From positions 384,239 to 448,238 of the forward strand of contig JAIPAM010000001.1 in NCBI GenBank assembly GCA_021740105.1: 64,000 nt of DNA, written 5' to 3'. Below are positions 20,476 to 39,981 of the stretch, piece after piece. The DNA is from Flavobacterium sp. (GTDB lineage Bacteria > Bacteroidota > Bacteroidia > Flavobacteriales > Flavobacteriaceae). A model generated the notes under the pieces. It was not told the DNA's origin, did no database searches, and saw nothing but the letters and a program-made list of their open reading frames with translations. Made by a program: the position numbers and the translations under genes. Each line of letters opens with the position of its first letter. The stretch's first letter is position 1.

Positions 20476-21975
20476 CTATTTTGTTTTTAAAAAATCAGCA
20501 ATCGTCCTGTCATTACTCAACCTCGGAATTTTGTTTTGTCCACCTAACTTCCCAATCGATTTCATATAGTCTTGGAAGCCATTTTTAGGCACTTTGGTAA
20601 CCACCAATTTTCGCAGAACTTTCCCCGCGATCAAATCGTCATAATACGAATTTTGGGTTCTCATTGCGTTATCTATCGCTTCCGCAAAGGCGTCTTCGTT
20701 TTCAGGTTCGCTTTCAAATTCTATAAACCATTCATGATACGGCAAACCATCAGTTGGTGTAATTTGTGGTGCGACGGTAAATTCGTTAATTTGAATTGAC
20801 GTGTTTTCCATCGCTTGTTTTAATGCGTGTTCAACTTCTTTTCCGATTACGTGTTCTCCAAAAGCGGAAATAAAATGTTTAACTCGGCCCGAGACAATCA
20901 CACGATACGGTTTTAAAGAGGTAAATTGAATGGTATCGCCAATATTATAACCCCAAAGTCCCGCGTTGGTTGAAATGATCAAAACATAATTGATGTTTAA
21001 TTCGACTTCGCCAATGGTATATCGCCTTGGTCCCGAAGTTTCGGGATCAGTAAAAAATTCTTCCGATTTTATAAATTCGTAGAAAATTCCGGAGTTTAAA
21101 AGCAATAACATTCCCTTTTCTTTTTGTGAATCTTGGTAAGCAAAAAAGCCTTCCGAGGCGGGAAACAATTCTATAGAATCGACTTTTCGGCCAATTAAAT
21201 TTTCAAATTTTGCTCGATAAGGTTCAAAATTTACTCCGCCGTAAATAAATAAATTGAAGTTTTTGAATAGCTCACCAACAGGTTTTTTAGCTTTTTGCTG
21301 TAATTTTTCAAAATACATTTGAACCCAAGATGGAATTCCAGAAATCACAGACATGTCTTCGTGAAATGTTTCTTCAACAATGGCGTCGACTTTGGTTTCC
21401 CAATCTTCAATACAATTGGTTTCAAATGTGGGCATTCGGTTTTTTTGCAAATATTTCGGCACAAAATGAGCTACAATTCCTGACAATCTTCCCAATTGAA
21501 TTCCATTTTTTTCTTCTAAAATAGGACTTCCTTGAAGAAAGATCATTTTTCCATTTACAAAATCAGCCTTTCCAGTTTCATGAATATAATGTAGAATGGC
21601 ATTTCGAGCGGCTTCAATATGAAATGGCATCGATTCCTTGGTTAGTGGAATGTATTTTGCGCCGGAGGTAGTTCCTGAAGTTTTAGCAAAATACAATGGT
21701 TTGCCTTTCCAAAGAACGTTTTCTTCACCTTGTACCACGCGATCAACATAGGTTTTTAGGGCTTCATAATCGCGAATGGGCACCTTATTAGAAAAATCTT
21801 GAAAGGAATTTATAGAATCAAAATGATGATCAATACCGAATTGCGTGTTTTTCGCTTGACGAATAATCTCTTTAAAAACGGTTTGTTGCGTTTGAACGGG
21901 ATTATCCGACCACAATTTAGTTTTTTTATAAATAGATTTGGCAAATTGTTTGGCCAAGAACGATTTTAAAGACAT
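20476..21975 (-). CDS. GH3-family acyl-acid-amido synthetase-like protein
   Basis: This 499-aa protein belongs to the GH3/ANL adenylating superfamily. The AMP/phosphate-binding TSGTTSGAKYIP is at 99-110, with FPASEGFFAYQ (about 268-278) and YNIGDTIQFTSL (about 324-335) following, and IVSGRVKHFISAFGEHV as the hinge to the C-terminal domain. Plant GH3 enzymes conjugate amino acids to hormones; bacterial members are widespread in Bacteroidota and their substrates are mostly unknown. It is the second gene of a four-gene minus operon starting near 22503, 30 bp after the coiled-coil membrane protein. Confidence 0.88.
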   Translation of the reverse strand: MSLKSFLAKQFAKSIYKKTKLWSDNPVQTQQTVFKEIIRQAKNTQFGIDHHFDSINSFQDFSNKVPIRDYEALKTYVDRVVQGEENVLWKGKPLYFAKTSGTTSGAKYIPLTKESMPFHIEAARNAILHYIHETGKADFVNGKMIFLQGSPILEEKNGIQLGRLSGIVAHFVPKYLQKNRMPTFETNCIEDWETKVDAIVEETFHEDMSVISGIPSWVQMYFEKLQQKAKKPVGELFKNFNLFIYGGVNFEPYRAKFENLIGRKVDSIELFPASEGFFAYQDSQKEKGMLLLLNSGIFYEFIKSEEFFTDPETSGPRRYTIGEVELNINYVLIISTNAGLWGYNIGDTIQFTSLKPYRVIVSGRVKHFISAFGEHVIGKEVEHALKQAMENTSIQINEFTVAPQITPTDGLPYHEWFIEFESEPENEDAFAEAIDNAMRTQNSYYDDLIAGKVLRKLVVTKVPKNGFQDYMKSIGKLGGQNKIPRLSNDRTIADFLKTK

Positions 21976-23342: not shown

Positions 23343-24112
23343 AAGTGTAATTTGTTGTAATTTGTTTTACAAATTTACCAAAACTAAACTGTGAATTTAT
23401 TTAGAATTTGAATTTTAATCAATAAATTATAAACACTTAATAATCAATACTAATTCTAATTTAACGATTCATTTTATTTAATAAATATGTTAATTTTTTA
23501 GAATGTTAATATCAGTTTATAACTAATTGATAATCAGTTAACCTTAATTTAACATGGAATGTTCATAACTTTAGATAGAAAATTATAAGTTTTTTTAGGT
23601 GGTGTGATAAAAATTTGTAATCAAAAATTGGATTGAATAAAACAATAAAACTTTCGAGAATTTTTAGAAAAGTTATTACTAACTATTTCTTCTTTATCAA
23701 CAAATTTTGAGTTTTGAATTATCTACAAAATAGTGTGTTTTTTAATTATTAACCGTTGTTAATTAAAAAATGAAATTAATTAATTTTAAAAGGTTTTATA
23801 TAAAATTAAGCTGTTTATAACTTGTGGTAAATAATTATAACTTAGAAATTACTCTAAAAAAAATAAACTTATTGTAACTATTAACAAACTATAATAACCA
23901 TCAAAAAATAATTGTAAATTAAATTTTCTTTTTATTATTTTTAATAGATGTTGATAACATTTAACTTAGTTGGCTCTATTTTTATAAAGGTAATTCTATT
24001 ATTCAACTTAAAGAATTAGTGTTATTAAAAAGTTTTATTTATTTAAAACTAAAGTTTATCAACCTTCAACTGCAAAGTATTTTGTAAATTTCAACCTTAT
24101 AAGTAAAGAACT
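23343..24112. other. 770-bp AT-rich gene-free region, candidate chromosomal origin (oriC)
   Basis: No open frame of note is present. I counted 113 G+C in the 660 bases 23401-24060, about 17%, far below the flanking genes. DnaA-box-like 9-mers (one mismatch to TTATCCACA) are TTATCAACA at 23694-23702 (+), TTATCTACA at 23719-23727 (+) and TTATCAACA at 23949-23957 (-). Weaker two-mismatch copies are at 23427-23435 (+), 23812-23820 (-) and 24056-24064 (+). All genes to the left except tatA are minus and the first genes to the right are plus, as expected for replication forks leaving this point. Three parS sites lie 13-15 kb to the right. dnaA is not adjacent; in Bacteroidota the origin often lies away from dnaA. 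Confidence 0.5.
23370..23377 (-). promoter_or_regulatory. Candidate -7 box for rpiB
   Basis: The minus strand reads TAAATTTG, a perfect TAnnTTTG, 27 nt before the rpiB ATG. Confidence 0.5.
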
Positions 24113-27815: not shown

Positions 27816-28364
27816 ATGAGTAGAAAATACAAGTTTGCAGAAAAAGACGGGGCTTATTTTGTTTCTTTTGCCACGATAAATTGGATTGATGTATTTACAA
27901 GAGACCTCTATTTTTCAACAATAACGGAATCATTAGCGTATTGTAGAAAAGAAAAAGGAATGGAATTATATGGTTACTGCATTATGCCTAGTCATGTACA
28001 TTTAATTTTTCGTTCATCATTTAGTGATCCTTCAGGATTAATAAGAGATTTTAAAGGTTTTACTTCTCGTAAATTAATGAAATTGATAGAAGATAATCCC
28101 CAAGAAAGCAGACGAGAATGGTTGATATGGATGTTTGAAAGAGCAGGGAAAAAGAACAGTAATATAGAAGTCAGTCAATTTTGGCAACAGCACAATAACC
28201 CAATTGAAATTTGGACATTAAAGGTTTTTGAGCAAAAGTTAAATTACATTCACAACAACCCTTTAGAATCCGGCTTTGTAACCGACCCAATTGATTGGAA
28301 ATACAGCAGTGCTAGAAATTATGGAAATAATGATAATACCGTATTAGAAATTGATTTGAATTAA
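27816..28364 (+). CDS. REP-associated tyrosine transposase (RAYT, Y1 family)
   Basis: This 182-aa protein starts MSRKYKFAEKDGAYFVSFAT. It has the Y1 transposase HxH motif in MPSHVHLIF (about 56-64) and the late helix ending in YIHNNPLESGFV (about 144-155), which contains the catalytic-tyrosine region. RAYTs are IS200/IS605-related single-domain nucleases that bind and cut REP hairpins. Inverted REP copies lie on both sides, and the 3' end of the gene is part of a 76-bp tandem duplication. The reading frame is intact; current mobility is unknown. Confidence 0.9.
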   Translation: MSRKYKFAEKDGAYFVSFATINWIDVFTRDLYFSTITESLAYCRKEKGMELYGYCIMPSHVHLIFRSSFSDPSGLIRDFKGFTSRKLMKLIEDNPQESRREWLIWMFERAGKKNSNIEVSQFWQQHNNPIEIWTLKVFEQKLNYIHNNPLESGFVTDPIDWKYSSARNYGNNDNTVLEIDLN

Positions 28365-36100: not shown

Positions 36101-36536
36101 TGGAGAAAGTGGCGACGATGGCGAGGGCAATGCAGGCGAAATTATGAAAATATACCAAGAGCAAAAACAACTTCGCGAGGCGCTAGAAAACGCCCTAAAC
36201 AAAGAGGGGTTTGGTGGAAATGGCCAAAATGCGATGGAGCAAATGAAGCAAATAGAAAAGCAATTATTAAACAAGGGTTTCAATAACGAGACACTTCAGA
36301 AAATATTGAATTTGCAATACGAACTCTTAAAATTAGAAAAAGCGGCCCAGCAGCAAGGCGAAGAAAAGAAGCGCCAATCACAAACCAATCTAAAGCAATT
36401 CAACAACCAAAGCAAGCCGCTTCCTGCAAATTTGCAAGAATATTTCAACAGCATTGAAATTTTAAACCGACAAACCTTACCTTTGCGTTCCAATTTTAAC
36501 CAAAAGGTTCAAGAATATTTTAAAAACAATGATTAG
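33189..36536 (+). CDS. DUF4175-like large membrane/coiled-coil protein
   Basis: The 1115-aa protein starts at a TTG (33189); an in-frame TAG sits at 33186-33188 and no nearby ATG exists. Two membrane spans lie near the N-terminus (about 24-45 and 54-75) and a third at about 155-172. A beta-rich periplasmic part (about 190-490) follows, then a long Lys/Glu/Gln-rich coiled coil (about 500-760). A Gly/Lys/Pro low-complexity region (about 895-985) comes before the C-terminal helices. This order fits the Bacteroidota DUF4175 family, whose function is not known to me. It overlaps ybeY by 8 bp, so the two are co-transcribed. Confidence 0.8.
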   Translation: MEDSKSIFLKLEAFIKKYYTNELIRGALFFIGLGLIYFLFTLFIEYFLWLKPIGRTTLFVLFVVVETFLLIRFVAFPIFKLFKLQKGINFEEASAIIGTHFTEVSDKLINFLQLSDLNNQEKSELLLASIEQKAKLLSPIPFSNAINFNVNRRYLPLAILPILFFLFFYVSGNSYVISQSFERVVNFKKQFLPPAPFKLVLLNKDLETEQNKDFVVKVKSEGKIIPETVMINIGSESYFMESNGRGEFQYKIEKPNSNVSFFMEANEVFSLDYELNVINVPAITNLEMTLNFPSYLNKKSETIKGTGNAIIPEGTTVTWKMTTVATQSVSWNDLKSSTSFLKQENLFRLSKNISQNTEYNIITSNNKVKDYERLSYQISVIKDQFPTINVNNAPDSLKVAKNYVLGQVSDDYGLSKLQIVYYEKDKPQSQKKALITVKKDIYDQFVFAFPSNLPVEQGIAYEYYFEVFDNDAIHNYKSSKSAVFYNRIATDQEKEEQILQEQNKNINSLEKSLKNQDKQISEIEKLQKNGKEKESLEYKDQQKINDFIKRQKQQDEIMKEYSKKMEENLDKFKTEKKDEFKEELQKRLANADKELEKNKKLLDELKELNDKLKNEELFEKLEKFKQITKNQTKTLEQLVELTKKYYVEKKAEQIADQLDKLADKQDKLAENEKENQVDKQEAINKQFDKIQEDLKELQKENKELKSPIDLPKDTEKENSINEDLKKATDELQKQNQSKAKPKQKSASKKMKEMSGDMTEGMAGSEMDQLEEDVKMLRQILDNLLAYSFSQEDLMKQFKGLKRGSPSFNKDLKIQQNLKQQFKHVDDSLFAMSLRNPKIAENVTQEIGNVHYNIDKALDSFVDSQISKGLSSQQYAISASNKLADFLSATLSNMQSEMKMSGSGKGGKPKPGKGQGSGMQLPDIIKKQEGLGEKMKEGMKKGNKPGEGTKPGQGEKGKSKGDGKTGNGDTPNGESGDDGEGNAGEIMKIYQEQKQLREALENALNKEGFGGNGQNAMEQMKQIEKQLLNKGFNNETLQKILNLQYELLKLEKAAQQQGEEKKRQSQTNLKQFNNQSKPLPANLQEYFNSIEILNRQTLPLRSNFNQKVQEYFKNND

Positions 36537-36948
36537 TTTTAATTACGAAACCGAATTTGAATTGCACAACGAAGCCGATTTTTCTCGGTGGCTTTCGGAG
36601 GTAATTCTCTCTGAAAACAAAAAAGAAGGGGAGATCAATTACATTTTTTGTGACGACGACTATTTGTTGGAAATCAACCAGCAATATTTGGAGCATGACA
36701 CCTTAACCGACATTATAAGTTTCGACTATTCTGTTGGAAATGAGATAAATGGAGATATTTTTGTGTCGGTTGAACGAGTTAAAGAAAACGCGTCCGACTA
36801 TAAAGTAACTTTCGACGAAGAAATTCAACGCGTTTTGGTTCATGGCATTTTGCATTATTGCGGATATAAAGACAAAACTGAAGCTGACGAGTTGGTCATG
36901 AGGGCTAAAGAAGAAGAGAAAATGAAAATGTTTCACGTGGAACAATAA
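36529..36948 (+). CDS. ybeY: Endoribonuclease YbeY (16S rRNA maturation)
   Basis: This 139-aa protein belongs to the UPF0054 family. It has ISFDYSVGNEINGDIFVSVE (63-82) and the metal site HGILHYCGYKD (105-115). The usual H-x3-H-x5-H would give a third His at 115; here it is Asp (D115), a plausible metal ligand. It processes 16S rRNA 3' ends and takes part in ribosome quality control. It overlaps the DUF4175 gene by 8 bp. Its last five residues (FHVEQ) are encoded within a near-perfect parS site (36929-36944), so this gene end may be constrained by ParB binding. Confidence 0.93.
   Translation: MISFNYETEFELHNEADFSRWLSEVILSENKKEGEINYIFCDDDYLLEINQQYLEHDTLTDIISFDYSVGNEINGDIFVSVERVKENASDYKVTFDEEIQRVLVHGILHYCGYKDKTEADELVMRAKEEEKMKMFHVEQ
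36929..36944. promoter_or_regulatory. parS site 1 (ParB-binding), inside the ybeY 3' end
   Basis: TGTTTCACGTGGAACA is the reverse complement of TGTTCCACGTGAAACA, a form of the widely conserved parS consensus TGTTNCACGTGAAACA. It codes for the last residues of YbeY and ends 4 bp before the end of the stop codon. Confidence 0.9.
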
Positions 36949-37060
36949 CAATTTGAAGCGAAATTTTTGGCTTCTAGGGAATATATTTTCCCGCTTTCAT
37001 TCCAAATCTCTCGAATAAATTCTTGAGGATTTTCCCTTCAATCGGGGCTAATTTTTTTTG

Positions 37061-37068
37061 TATTTTTG
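37061..37068 (+). promoter_or_regulatory. Candidate -7 box for mnmG
   Basis: TATTTTTG, a perfect TAnnTTTG, lies 68 nt before the TTG start. The parS site at 37091-37106 would lie in the 5' untranslated leader, just downstream of the predicted transcription start. Confidence 0.45.
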
Positions 37069-37090
37069 CATTTGAATTGTCAGAAGAAAA

Positions 37091-37106
37091 TGTTTCACGT
37101 GGAACA
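37091..37106. promoter_or_regulatory. parS site 2 (ParB-binding), upstream of mnmG
   Basis: It is the identical 16-mer TGTTTCACGTGGAACA in the same orientation as site 1, 162 bp to its right, in the 188-bp gap before mnmG. ParB bound here might also affect mnmG transcription. Confidence 0.92.
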
Positions 37107-37136
37107 CAGTTATAACGATTATTAAATAATAAGAAT

Positions 37137-39008
37137 TTGTTTCAAGATACTTACGATGTTATTGTTGTTGGCGCTGGCCATGCCGGTTCAGAAGCCGCTG
37201 CAGCCGCTGCTAATTTAGGAGCCAAAACACTATTGGTCACCATGAGCTTGCAAAACATTGCCCAAATGTCTTGTAATCCTGCTATGGGAGGAATTGCCAA
37301 GGGGCAAATTGTAAGAGAAATTGATGCGTTGGGAGGCTATTCAGGAATTGTGTCTGACAATACCGCCATCCAATTCAAGATGTTGAATAAATCAAAAGGT
37401 CCTGCAATGTGGTCGCCGAGAGTACAAAGCGACCGAATGCGATTTGCTGAAGAATGGAGGTTGATGTTGGAGCAAACGCCCAATCTTGACTTTTATCAAG
37501 AAATGGTTTCAGGGCTAATCATCGAAAACGGACAAATAAAAGGGATTAAAACCTCTTTGGGAATTCAAATAAAAGCGAAAACGGTAGTGCTTACCAACGG
37601 AACTTTTCTAAACGGTTTAATCCATATTGGTGAAAAGCAATTTGGAGGAGGAAGAGCTGGAGAAAGCGCTTCTCACGGAGTTACTGAAGATTTAGTAAAA
37701 GCAGGTTTTGAATCTGGAAGAATGAAAACCGGAACCCCACCAAGAGTGGATGGAAGGTCGTTGGATTATTCCAAAATGAATGAGGAGAAAGGCGATTTAA
37801 AACCTGATAAATTCTCTTATTCAGACATTACCAAACCACTTACCCTTCAAAAATCATGTTACATGACGTATACTTCTTTGGACGTTCATGACATTTTAAG
37901 AGAAGGATTTGATCGGTCTCCGATGTTTAACGGAAGAATAAAAAGCTTAGGACCACGATATTGCCCTTCCATTGAAGATAAAATAAATCGCTTTGCTGAC
38001 AAGGAGAGACACCAGTTATTTGTGGAGCCAGAAGGATGGAATACCGTTGAAGTTTATGTAAATGGTTTTTCTACTTCTTTGCCAGAAGATATCCAATTTA
38101 AAGCATTAAGTTCAGTTGTGGGTTTTGAAAAAGTCAAGTTTTTTAGACCAGGCTACGCTATCGAATACGACTATTTCCCACCCACACAATTAAAACATAC
38201 GCTGGAAACGAAGTTAGTTGAAGGACTTTACTTTGCCGGACAAATTAATGGAACTACAGGTTATGAAGAAGCAGCGTCACAAGGATTAATGGCAGGAATC
38301 AATGCGGCATTAAAAGTTCAAGAACGAGCTCCTTTAATTTTGAAAAGAGACGAGGCTTACATTGGGGTTTTAATAGATGATTTGATAACAAAAGGAACAG
38401 AAGAGCCGTATAGAATGTTTACGTCTAGAGCGGAATTCAGAACGTTATTGCGTCAAGACAATGCCGATTTTAGATTGACACCTCTTTCTCATGAAATAGG
38501 GTTAGCATCAGAAAAGCGTCTTCGAAGAATGGAACACAAGCTTAATGAATCGGAGAAAATGGTTGCTTTTTTCAAAGAAACTAGCATCTCTCCTGTAGAG
38601 GCCAACCCGATTTTAGAAGCTAAAGAAACGGCCATTATCGATCAATCGGACAAGATGTTTAAAATGTTTTCTCGCCCTCAAATTGAGTTAGAAGACATGA
38701 TGAAATTAGACAAAGTAAAGGAGTACATTTCTGTTAATGAGATCGATTTAGAGATATTAGAACAAGCTGAAATTCAAGTTAAATATTCAGGTTATATTGA
38801 AAAGGAGAGAAACAACGCCAATAAATTATTGCGTTTGGAAGATTTAAAAATACCAGAAGATTTTGATTACAATAACATCAAATCGATGTCGATAGAAGCC
38901 AAGCAAAAGCTATCAAAAATTAGACCTGTAACCATTTCACAAGCCTCTAGAATTAGCGGTGTTTCCCCAAGTGATATTTCAGTTTTGTTAATTTATATGG
39001 GACGTTAA
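37137..39008 (+). CDS. mnmG: tRNA uridine-5-carboxymethylaminomethyl modification enzyme MnmG (GidA)
   Basis: This 623-aa flavoprotein starts at a TTG (MFQDTYDVIVVGAGHAGSEA). The FAD-binding GAGHAG is at 12-17, followed by SCNPAMGGIAKGQIVREIDAL (split at about 44-64, with the conserved Cys) and GTPPRVDGRS. The conserved FAGQINGTTGYEEAASQG segment (about 366-383) and the C-terminal tRNA-binding domain with RPVTISQASRISGVSP complete it. With MnmE it modifies U34 of certain tRNAs. The TTG start is preferred because the family begins almost exactly here. parS sites lie on both sides. Confidence 0.96.
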   Translation: MFQDTYDVIVVGAGHAGSEAAAAAANLGAKTLLVTMSLQNIAQMSCNPAMGGIAKGQIVREIDALGGYSGIVSDNTAIQFKMLNKSKGPAMWSPRVQSDRMRFAEEWRLMLEQTPNLDFYQEMVSGLIIENGQIKGIKTSLGIQIKAKTVVLTNGTFLNGLIHIGEKQFGGGRAGESASHGVTEDLVKAGFESGRMKTGTPPRVDGRSLDYSKMNEEKGDLKPDKFSYSDITKPLTLQKSCYMTYTSLDVHDILREGFDRSPMFNGRIKSLGPRYCPSIEDKINRFADKERHQLFVEPEGWNTVEVYVNGFSTSLPEDIQFKALSSVVGFEKVKFFRPGYAIEYDYFPPTQLKHTLETKLVEGLYFAGQINGTTGYEEAASQGLMAGINAALKVQERAPLILKRDEAYIGVLIDDLITKGTEEPYRMFTSRAEFRTLLRQDNADFRLTPLSHEIGLASEKRLRRMEHKLNESEKMVAFFKETSISPVEANPILEAKETAIIDQSDKMFKMFSRPQIELEDMMKLDKVKEYISVNEIDLEILEQAEIQVKYSGYIEKERNNANKLLRLEDLKIPEDFDYNNIKSMSIEAKQKLSKIRPVTISQASRISGVSPSDISVLLIYMGR

Positions 39009-39029
39009 TGATTTTTGATTTCTGATTTC
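39009..39029. repeat. Three heptamer tandem repeats after mnmG
   Basis: TGATTTT, TGATTTC, TGATTTC follow the mnmG stop directly, 10 bp before parS site 3. The 7-nt period matches that seen between folB and glnS. Confidence 0.6.
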
Positions 39030-39039
39030 AGAATGCTAA

Positions 39040-39055
39040 TGTTCCACGTGAAACT
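39040..39055. promoter_or_regulatory. parS site 3 (ParB-binding), downstream of mnmG
   Basis: TGTTCCACGTGAAACT has one mismatch (last base) to TGTTCCACGTGAAACA. Its orientation is opposite to sites 1 and 2. It lies 31 bp after the mnmG stop. Confidence 0.85.
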
Positions 39056-39120: not shown

Positions 39121-39981
39121 ATGGATATTTCTAATAAAAAACACTTTCTTAACGTAATTGATCATTCTGTCTCAAAAGAGACTTTCGACTTGTATTATGA
39201 TCAAGATTTAGACATGTTAATCACTTCGCCACAACCTTCTCCTGAAAATCTAGGGAAGTATTATGAAAGTACCGACTATATTTCTCACACGGATTCAAAA
39301 CGTTCCTTATTTGAAAAAGCCTATCATTTTGTAAAAGGAATCGCATTAAAAAATAAGTTAAATCTAATTAATAATAGCAGTACTTCAAAAGGCAATTTAT
39401 TAGATATCGGAGCCGGAACCGGAGATTTTTTATTAACTGCTAAACAAAATGGTTGGAATACTATTGGAGTTGAACCAAGCGAAAAAGCAAAAGGGATTGC
39501 AATTAATAAAGGAATCCAGTTTTCAGATTCTACTCAAGAATTAGAAAGCCACTCTTTTGACGTAATTACCATGTGGCACGTTTTAGAGCACGTTCCTAAT
39601 TTGGAAATTCAAATCAAAGAATTAAAAAGATTGGTTAAACCAAATGGAACCATAATCATTGCGGTTCCCAATTATAAATCTTACGATGCCAATTATTATG
39701 GTAAATTTTGGGCAGCATTTGACGTGCCAATTCACTTCTGGCATTTTTCCAAAAAAGCGATCCAGTTACTTTTTGAAAAAGAAAATTTAAAATTAGAAAA
39801 AGTCCTACCTATGAAGTTTGATTCTTTTTATGTGAGTTTGCTTTCGGAAAAATACAAAAATGGGAAAATGAATTATTTAAAAGCAATTTGGATTGGGTTA
39901 GTTTCCAATTGGAAAGCAAAAAGAAGTTTAGAGTATTCCTCACACATTTATGTCTTAAAAAATAGCCACAAAACGATATAA
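39121..39981 (+). CDS. Class I SAM-dependent methyltransferase
   Basis: This 286-aa protein has motif I as LLDIGAGTGDFLLTA (about 91-105), the acidic GVEPSEKAKGIA (about 116-127), and FDVITMWHVLEHVPN (about 145-159). LVKPNGTIIIAVPNYKSYD then precedes a C-terminal FGKFWAAFDVPIHFWHF-like block (Y-G-K-F-W). The N-terminal part has LYYDQDLDMLITSPQPSPENLGKYY-type sequence (about 20-44), as in UbiG-like or sugar/lipid methyltransferases. Substrate unknown. It starts 65 bp after parS site 3 and is not tightly linked to its neighbours. Confidence 0.82.
   Translation: MDISNKKHFLNVIDHSVSKETFDLYYDQDLDMLITSPQPSPENLGKYYESTDYISHTDSKRSLFEKAYHFVKGIALKNKLNLINNSSTSKGNLLDIGAGTGDFLLTAKQNGWNTIGVEPSEKAKGIAINKGIQFSDSTQELESHSFDVITMWHVLEHVPNLEIQIKELKRLVKPNGTIIIAVPNYKSYDANYYGKFWAAFDVPIHFWHFSKKAIQLLFEKENLKLEKVLPMKFDSFYVSLLSEKYKNGKMNYLKAIWIGLVSNWKAKRSLEYSSHIYVLKNSHKTI

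What the first reader, a model, noticed from the sequence alone, without database searches (positions are those of the whole stretch)
36929..39055. Three near-perfect parS sites bracketing mnmG
16-mers at 36929-36944 and 37091-37106 are identical (TGTTTCACGTGGAACA) and the one at 39040-39055 differs by one base from the reverse complement of these. The match to the parS consensus recognised by chromosomal ParB is far above chance for 64 kb. parS sites mark the origin-proximal domain, so they independently support the oriC candidate. The cluster is a likely ParB loading and SMC recruitment centre.
Basis: partly seen in the sequence, partly recalled or inferred. Interest (0 to 1): 0.75.

Follow-up and report, generated by a model that had tools for sequence, protein, structure and literature searches.

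The report
Chromosome centromere sites hugging mnmG gene
Three short DNA sites matching the bacterial centromere motif parS flank the gene mnmG here, and the same placement recurs in most sampled families of the phylum although neighbouring genes differ and the usual partner protein ScpB was found in none of 118 genomes of this order; the sites therefore likely seed ParA/ParB chromosome segregation without that partner.

Summary
Three parS-like 16-mers flank mnmG and are the only matches at up to one mismatch in the 2.19 Mb genome. parA/parB are on another contig.

Two changes to the reading. (1) The tie is to mnmG itself and is phylum-wide. A site (up to one mismatch) lies within 500 bp of mnmG in 75 of 80 related loci, on both sides in 67. 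In a phylum sample it lies within 150 bp in 26 of 31 genomes and 14 of 18 families, beside different neighbours. Of 41 exact sites in a cut genome-wide listing, 38 are within 2 kb of mnmG. (2) SMC recruitment is not supported: ScpB is absent from 118 of 118 genomes of this order but present in 26 of 26 sampled outside it, and no Smc over the cut-off was found here.

Site 1 is written into the end of ybeY. In relatives those tail codons are fixed (CAC 38/38, GTG 36/36), so DNA shapes the protein tail.

Origin proximity fits sampled GC skew in two single-contig relatives; this genome's contig is ambiguous. Most likely an old origin-region centromere, anchored at mnmG, used here by ParABS without SMC-ScpAB. 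ParB binding is untested.

The parts
36929..36944 (+). parS site 1, exact, inside the last codons of ybeY (codes M-F-H-V-E-Q)
   Evidence: a site (up to 2 mismatches) overlaps the ybeY 3' end in 41 of 76 relatives with ybeY
37091..37106 (+). parS site 2, exact, 30 bp upstream of the mnmG start codon; shares 21 identical bases with site 1
39040..39055 (-). parS site 3, one mismatch, 31 bp downstream of the mnmG stop codon
37137..39008 (+). mnmG (gidA), tRNA-modification enzyme, the gene that parS stays beside
   Evidence: PF01134 E=2.2e-159; relatives
36529..36948 (+). ybeY, endoribonuclease; its C-terminal tail is coded by parS site 1
   Evidence: PF02130 E=3.6e-30
39121..39981 (+). SAM methyltransferase gene downstream of site 3 (neighbour; a relative is found downstream in most of the 80 loci)
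   Evidence: PF13489
23343..24112 (.). AT-rich gap between divergent rpiB and rnr, a possible oriC about 13 kb from site 1; weak evidence only
   Evidence: local skew minimum at 21573; three 1-mismatch DnaA-box-like 9-mers, no window-wide excess; rnr and rpiB both within 10 kb of mnmG in 16 of 80 loci

Best explanation
The three 16-mers match parS and are likely the chromosome's ParB-loading centromere, from which ParA is predicted to move the newly copied origin region in a genome where neither ScpB nor an Smc protein over the family cut-off was found. Shown by calls: the sites, their rarity, parA and parB elsewhere in the genome, the parS-type recognition residues of ParB, and the phylum-wide placement at the ends of mnmG with changing neighbours. 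Also shown: fixed codons of the site in the tail of ybeY, absence of ScpB from all 118 sampled genomes of the order, and the fit of parS to the sampled GC-skew switch in two single-contig relatives. Inferred: ParB dimers load as CTP clamps at the three sites and slide over mnmG and its flanks, and the clamp-coated region becomes ParA's cargo. Also inferred: mnmG is where the centromere settled because both are old residents of the origin region (the classic gidA-gidB-parAB block, recalled), and sites tens of bases from a gene are rarely parted from it by rearrangement. parAB later moved away while parS stayed.
For: Sites and rarity. ParB 171 bits over the cut-off, with ParA as the adjacent gene. 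An ungapped alignment through the recognition helices keeps residues named as parS contacts in PMC7383237 (passages): R173, N178, G201, R204, also Q162, G170, K171; S172 is K here (register set by motif, the Caulobacter protein itself was not aligned). 80 loci: a site at up to 1 mismatch within 500 bp of mnmG in 75, both sides in 67; 114 of 119 exact sites fall in that stretch; nearest site a median of 16 bp upstream and 8 bp downstream. One shuffle of each locus gave 1 hit in all. Phylum sample: within 150 bp in 26 of 31 genomes, own genome included; 91 sites against 15 for the reversed-pattern control (summed by hand); 38 of 41 listed exact sites within 2 kb of mnmG. Different neighbours (15 of 30 loci). 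YbeY tail codons and skew in G029 and G005. ScpB 0 of 118 in the order, 26 of 26 outside it.
Against: No binding or segregation data. Own-contig skew is ambiguous, and in G029 the skew maximum is not opposite the minimum. Two of 31 phylum genomes (G002, G013) have no site at up to 1 mismatch within 1.5 kb of mnmG, and in G030, G022 and G001 the nearest is 305 bp, 501 bp and 1.6 kb away. Five of 80 loci lack a site at up to 1 mismatch within 500 bp; three of these (L059, L060, L087) have 2-mismatch sites there, L071 and L085 none. Absence of Smc rests on a 97.9% complete genome and four other genomes of the order; ScpA and MukB were not searched.
Confidence: 0.82

Rival explanations
1. A classical SMC-loading centre: ParB at parS recruits Smc-ScpAB, which aligns the chromosome arms.
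For: This is the known role of origin-proximal parS (PMC7333895, passages). Smc and ScpB are present in the sampled phylum outside this order.
Against: No ScpB in this genome or in 118 of 118 genomes of the order. Best Smc match is 24.8 bits against a cut-off of 567.35. PF11855, an MksF/JetA-type family (link recalled), is absent in 5 of 5, but that test is weak: its control rings in 1 of 14 genomes.
Confidence: 0.05
2. The bracket is regulatory: ParB clamps loaded at the ends of mnmG would control its transcription and so tie tRNA modification to origin copying. This is compatible with a centromere role.
For: Sites abut the start and stop of mnmG (median gaps 16 and 8 bp), on both sides in 67 of 80 loci and 12 of 30 phylum loci, beside different neighbours. 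ParB regulates genes in a few species, though not necessarily near parS (PMC7022226, passages).
Against: The number of sites varies widely (1 to about 10 upstream). 13 of 30 phylum loci have sites within 150 bp on one side only. No expression data.
Confidence: 0.13
3. Passive anchoring: the sites have no function tied to mnmG and stay beside it only because breakpoints rarely fall in gaps of tens of bases. This is the null for why mnmG, and it is built into the best explanation.
For: Short gaps. An mnmE-mnmG-gidB order with parS is still seen in G004, G009 and G019.
Against: Both ends are kept in many lineages, and extra sites arise in the same gaps (L009, L010, L011). In G007 a CAP-type gene lies between ybeY and mnmG and there is an exact site on either side of it.
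Confidence: 0.55
4. RNA-level hairpins (leader and terminator) selected in the mnmG transcript that only look like parS.
For: The palindromes could form a 6-bp stem (by inspection, not folded) and lie next to the start and stop codons.
Against: On the mnmG strand, variants that break the RNA stem (C5/A12) are not rarer than those that keep it as a wobble (T5/G12): 20 against 14 upstream, 24 against 5 downstream. Site 1 lies inside a coding region.
Confidence: 0.02
5. Binding sites of a Noc-type paralogue or another CACGTG-binding factor, not ParB.
For: CACGTG cores are used by other factors (recalled).
Against: Only one protein over the parB cut-off in the genome, with parS-type R173/G201 rather than Noc-type Q173/R201. 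The second match (29.4 bits) is a ParB-like domain in front of a DNA-methyltransferase-like part (by inspection).
Confidence: 0.03

Closest known systems
Chromosomal parS of B. subtilis / Caulobacter / P. aeruginosa ParABS
   Same: Same 16-bp palindrome (P. aeruginosa parS2/3 TGTTCCACGTGGAACA; PMC4368675, passage), ParA/ParB in the genome, few clustered sites.
   Different: parAB lies about 0.3 Mb or more from mnmG in 7 of 7 phylum genomes with both on one contig (299.5 kb in G002), whereas Caulobacter parS is adjacent to parAB (PMC4368675, passage). No ScpB found in this order. Sites flank mnmG.
Classic gidA-gidB-parA-parB block beside oriC (recalled for Proteobacteria, Firmicutes)
   Same: parS next to gidA (= mnmG); an mnmE-mnmG-gidB order survives in G004, G009 and G019.
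   Different: parAB is not beside mnmG; in the Flavobacteriales loci seen here ybeY and, in most, a SAM methyltransferase flank mnmG instead.
Bacteroidetes with parS but no known condensin (PMC10197239, section 20 read)
   Same: parS clusters without a recognisable Smc complex (B. caecimuris, M. intestinale).
   Different: Those two belong to another order (recalled). Here absence of ScpB is shown across 118 genomes of this order, while 26 of 26 other sampled members of the phylum have it.

Membership tests
chromosomal parS | 16-bp palindrome close to the parS consensus | tested here: met
   two sites with 0 and one with 1 mismatch to TGTTNCACGTGNAACA; within the 2 mismatches to TGTTTCACGTGAAACA allowed in PMC10197239
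chromosomal parS | few sites per genome, clustered | tested here: met
   three sites in 2.13 kb; nothing else at up to 1 mismatch in 2.19 Mb
chromosomal parS | located in the origin region | tested here: inconclusive
   own contig ambiguous; fits sampled skew in two single-contig relatives, G029 and G005
chromosomal parS | bound by ParB in cells or in vitro | not testable with these tools
   needs ChIP-seq or a binding assay
ParABS system | parA and parB genes in the genome | tested here: met
   ParB_N, HTH_ParB, ParB_C domains; adjacent ParA
ParABS system | ParB carries parS-type specificity residues R173 and G201 | tested here: met
   against PMC7383237 passages; register by motif
SMC-ScpAB loading centre | Smc protein in the genome | tested here: not met
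   best 24.8 bits, cut-off 567.35
SMC-ScpAB loading centre | ScpB in the genome | tested here: not met
   none; 0 of 118 in the order
SMC-ScpAB loading centre | ScpA in the genome | not tested
gidAB-parAB origin block | parAB within a few kb of gidA | tested here: not met
   mnmG on contig C1, parB on contig C4
Noc/NBS | Noc-type residues Q173 and R201 | tested here: not met
   R and G at these positions

The most novel reading that the evidence does not exclude
mnmG is held between ParB-loading sites for a reason: ParB clamps threaded on at its two ends gate or read out transcription of this tRNA-modification gene, making mnmG a conserved part of the Bacteroidota centromere. In Flavobacteriales this ParB-mnmG-ParA unit segregates the origin with no condensin at all.
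Probability: 0.15. Interest if true: 0.8.

Novelty: new variant of a known kind. Interest (0 to 1): 0.55.

Why it matters
It gives one rule for finding the centromere, and likely the origin, in most of a phylum: look at the two ends of mnmG. It marks an order that keeps parS and (in the five genomes checked) ParB while ScpB is missing from every genome sampled, a natural setting to ask what ParB-parS does without SMC. It also gives a clean case where a DNA site dictates the end of a conserved protein, which matters for anyone reading the YbeY tail as functional.

Tried and rejected
SMC recruitment: rejected. RNA hairpin reading: not supported by the variant counts. DnaA boxes as support for oriC: no excess in the window; the rnr-rpiB gaps of 16 relatives showed no consistent box. 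Own-contig GC skew: inconclusive. Sites with a CACATG centre (L036, L057) and those of L059-L062 were looked at by eye but the matching ParB proteins were not compared. PF11855 as a test for Mks-type condensins is weak. An early idea that ybeY is flipped relative to mnmG in G012 was a misreading of an unturned locus; one search shows ybeY upstream on the same strand, and the idea is dropped. Searches ended in script errors and treated minus-strand loci as if turned; their phylum-locus output was discarded and redone (the gene-distance part ran). Searches for earlier reports in the held library; I read the listings, plus passages of seven papers and one section and a search of an eighth that held no hit, not every listed paper. 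None of what I saw named parS beside mnmG or loss of ScpB in Flavobacteriales. The key survey (Livny 2007, PMC2168934) is not held and most subscription papers are absent, so priority is not established.
Full report
What is there. The window belongs to a 2.19 Mb, 15-contig, 97.9% complete genome. The nearest mnmG locus found is in a bin titled Chitinophaga pinensis (98%), probably misnamed; the next are Flavobacterium records. I treat the genome as Flavobacterium by inference. The two exact 16-mers and the one-mismatch 16-mer are at the stated places. Site 1 is the 3' end of ybeY: ATG TTT CAC GTG GAA CAA TAA reads M-F-H-V-E-Q-stop. Site 2 is 30 bp before the TTG start of mnmG and site 3 is 31 bp after its stop. 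Sites 1 and 2 share 21 bases, which hints at copying. At up to one mismatch no other site exists in the genome. One two-mismatch site at C1:72469 lies in an unrelated ORF.

The trans factors. One protein passes the ParB cut-off (171 bits, contig C4). It has ParB_N, HTH_ParB and ParB_C domains; ParA is the gene before it. In reading direction the order is parA, parB, an unnamed gene, a dapB-like gene (the last by inspection). Its recognition region aligns without gaps to solved B. subtilis Spo0J and to another solved ParB. It keeps R and G at the positions that PMC7383237 names as parS determinants (R173, G201; passages). The sites are thus likely bound by this ParB. All 31 phylum genomes have a protein over the ParB cut-off. 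parB and mnmG are on different contigs here, and about 0.3 Mb or more apart in all 7 of the 31 phylum genomes that have both on one contig (G002 299.5 kb; also G003, G005, G007, G008, G029, G030).

The placement is conserved and belongs to mnmG. The 80 loci are the best 80 of a cut list found by MnmG similarity. A site at up to one mismatch lies within 500 bp of mnmG in 75, upstream in 74, downstream in 68, on both sides in 67. Exact sites lie there in 62 of 80, and 114 of 119 exact sites in 1.59 Mb fall in that stretch (mnmG included), which is 14% of the bases. The nearest site is a median of 16 bp upstream and 8 bp downstream. One shuffle of each locus gave 1 hit in all.

A sample of 31 genomes, own included, drawn evenly from the phylum lowers the bias of starting from close relatives. 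Genome-wide there are 91 sites at up to one mismatch against 15 for the reversed pattern (summed by hand). Of 30 fetched loci, 25 have a site within 150 bp of mnmG: 12 on both sides, 7 downstream only, 6 upstream only. The 31st genome, G027, has one 14 bp away. That makes 26 of 31 genomes and 14 of 18 families. Exceptions: G002 and G013 (none within 1.5 kb), G030, G022 and G001 (305 bp, 501 bp, 1.6 kb). Of 41 exact sites in the cut listing, 38 are within 2 kb of mnmG; the listing leaves out G003, G008 and G013 and one site of G030. G003 and G008 each have three exact sites within 160 bp of mnmG. Of the other three, G025 C1:545 is at the ybeY end on a broken contig, and the two in G030 are 7 and 13 kb away. 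The 16 far one-mismatch sites are about as many as the control finds. G017 has one exact site inside mnmG.

Neighbours change while parS stays. The largest ORF in each fetched 1.5 kb flank, not always the next gene, was named by Pfam for 15 of the 30 phylum loci. Upstream: MnmE (G006, G004, G009, G014, G019), ClpC-type AAA, SoxZ, SpoIIE, PAS, arginase, CAP, AlgH. Downstream: GidB (G004, G009, G019), DNA polymerase B, WYL regulator, BadF-type ATPase, MqnC-type radical SAM, TRCF, SIS domain, SAM methyltransferase. Five flank ORFs matched no family. ybeY was found by similarity in 5 of 30 loci (four of the order and G007), upstream on the strand of mnmG. In G007 a CAP-type gene sits between ybeY and mnmG with an exact site on either side. 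Drag of a whole gene block therefore does not explain the pattern; a short tie to mnmG itself does.

DNA dictates the YbeY tail. ybeY was found upstream in 76 of 80 loci, and in 41 a site at up to two mismatches overlaps its 3' end. Choosing tails by protein pattern (F-H-x-E/K) rather than by DNA gives 38 tails. His is CAC in 38 of 38, against 129 of 337 in the rest of ybeY. Val is GTG in 36 of 36 (two more tails have Met), against 89 of 553. Three more tails read the site in another frame (V-S/P-R-E-T). In 35 of 76 no site overlaps ybeY and the tail differs. Shared ancestry means these counts are not independent. In L063, L064 and L067 a site begins within the mnmG stop codon.

No SMC partner seen in this order. 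Smc: best 24.8 bits against a cut-off of 567.35 in this genome. ScpB: none. Across the 31 phylum genomes ScpB is present in 26 and missing in exactly the five of this order. Smc passes the cut-off in 24; the other seven are those five plus G024 (partial, at a contig start) and G030 (two pieces). In 118 genomes of the order, own included, ScpB is absent from all 118. Among the named control genomes, Bacteroides ihuae is not in the list that rings for ScpB. This fits the report of no known condensin in two Bacteroidetes (PMC10197239, section 20 read). That paper also saw an arm-alignment signal in B. caecimuris, so another loader may exist. ScpA and MukB were not searched, and the PF11855 test is weak.

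Origin proximity. Contig C1 of this genome has a local skew minimum at window 21.6 kb, 15 kb from the sites, but a deeper one about 190 kb beyond them, so skew does not place oriC here. Two single-contig relatives were sampled by 20 kb stretches, 39 stretches every 65 kb for G029 and 20 about every 170 kb for G005. In G029 the cumulative minimum is at the 845 kb sample and the next sample, 910 kb, is positive; mnmG is at 876 kb. Its maximum is near 1.7 Mb and flat after, so its terminus is unclear. In G005 the minimum is at the 850 kb sample and the first positive sample, 1.02 Mb, holds mnmG (1.025 Mb); the opposite switch, after 2.55 Mb, is about half a chromosome away. The AT-rich rpiB-rnr gap at 23343-24112 remains a candidate only.

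Mechanism. Shown: sites, proteins, conservation, missing partner. Inferred from the known ParABS mechanism (PMC7333895, passages): ParB nucleates at parS, spreads, and is moved by ParA, carrying the origin region; clamp loading with CTP is recalled knowledge of ParB. Here that would have to work without SMC-ScpAB. Why mnmG: most likely the old gidA-gidB-parAB origin block (recalled) lost parAB but kept parS at gidA/mnmG. A regulatory tie between ParB and mnmG is not excluded and is the most novel reading.

Limits. Library searches for earlier reports found none in what I saw (listings, and passages of seven papers). The central survey of parS sites by Livny and colleagues (2007) is not held. 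I therefore claim a new variant only, with priority unproven. On re-checking I dropped one supporting point (a supposed ybeY flip in G012) and corrected the parB distance; neither changes the odds.

Noticed in passing
L036 upstream of mnmG; L057 upstream of mnmG: In two loci (L036 is a Kordia record) the upstream sites have a CACATG centre (TGTTCCACATGGAACA), while downstream a CACGTG site with changed ends remains; a possible shift in ParB/parS recognition.
   Followed up: partly
L009 (Flavobacterium sp. MC2016-06), upstream of mnmG: Ten sites at up to one mismatch in the 1.17 kb from the ybeY end to mnmG, four of them identical CACATG versions spaced about 117 bp; looks like recent tandem growth of a centromere array.
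   Followed up: no
L194 1-560 and L126 (genome G025): The assembly seems to break inside the ybeY-mnmG gap, which is rich in parS-like and other short repeats; such breaks could hide centromeres in draft genomes.
   Followed up: partly
L130 339-1501 (genome G007): A CAP-family gene between ybeY and mnmG, with an exact parS just after the ybeY stop and another before mnmG.
   Followed up: partly
L008, L018: Records titled Chitinophaga pinensis and Limnohabitans carry mnmG loci 98% and 81% identical to this genome's, with ybeY upstream and a SAM methyltransferase downstream; probably mis-named bins.
   Followed up: no
L132 (genome G017), about 370 bp into mnmG: An exact parS inside the mnmG coding region in addition to three upstream sites.
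   Followed up: no
L006 370-1818: A ParB-like N-terminal domain fused to a DNA-methyltransferase-like part near the end of contig C11; below the ParB cut-off.
   Followed up: no
window 27816-28364: ORF that looks like a REP-associated (Y1) transposase, by inspection only.
   Followed up: no
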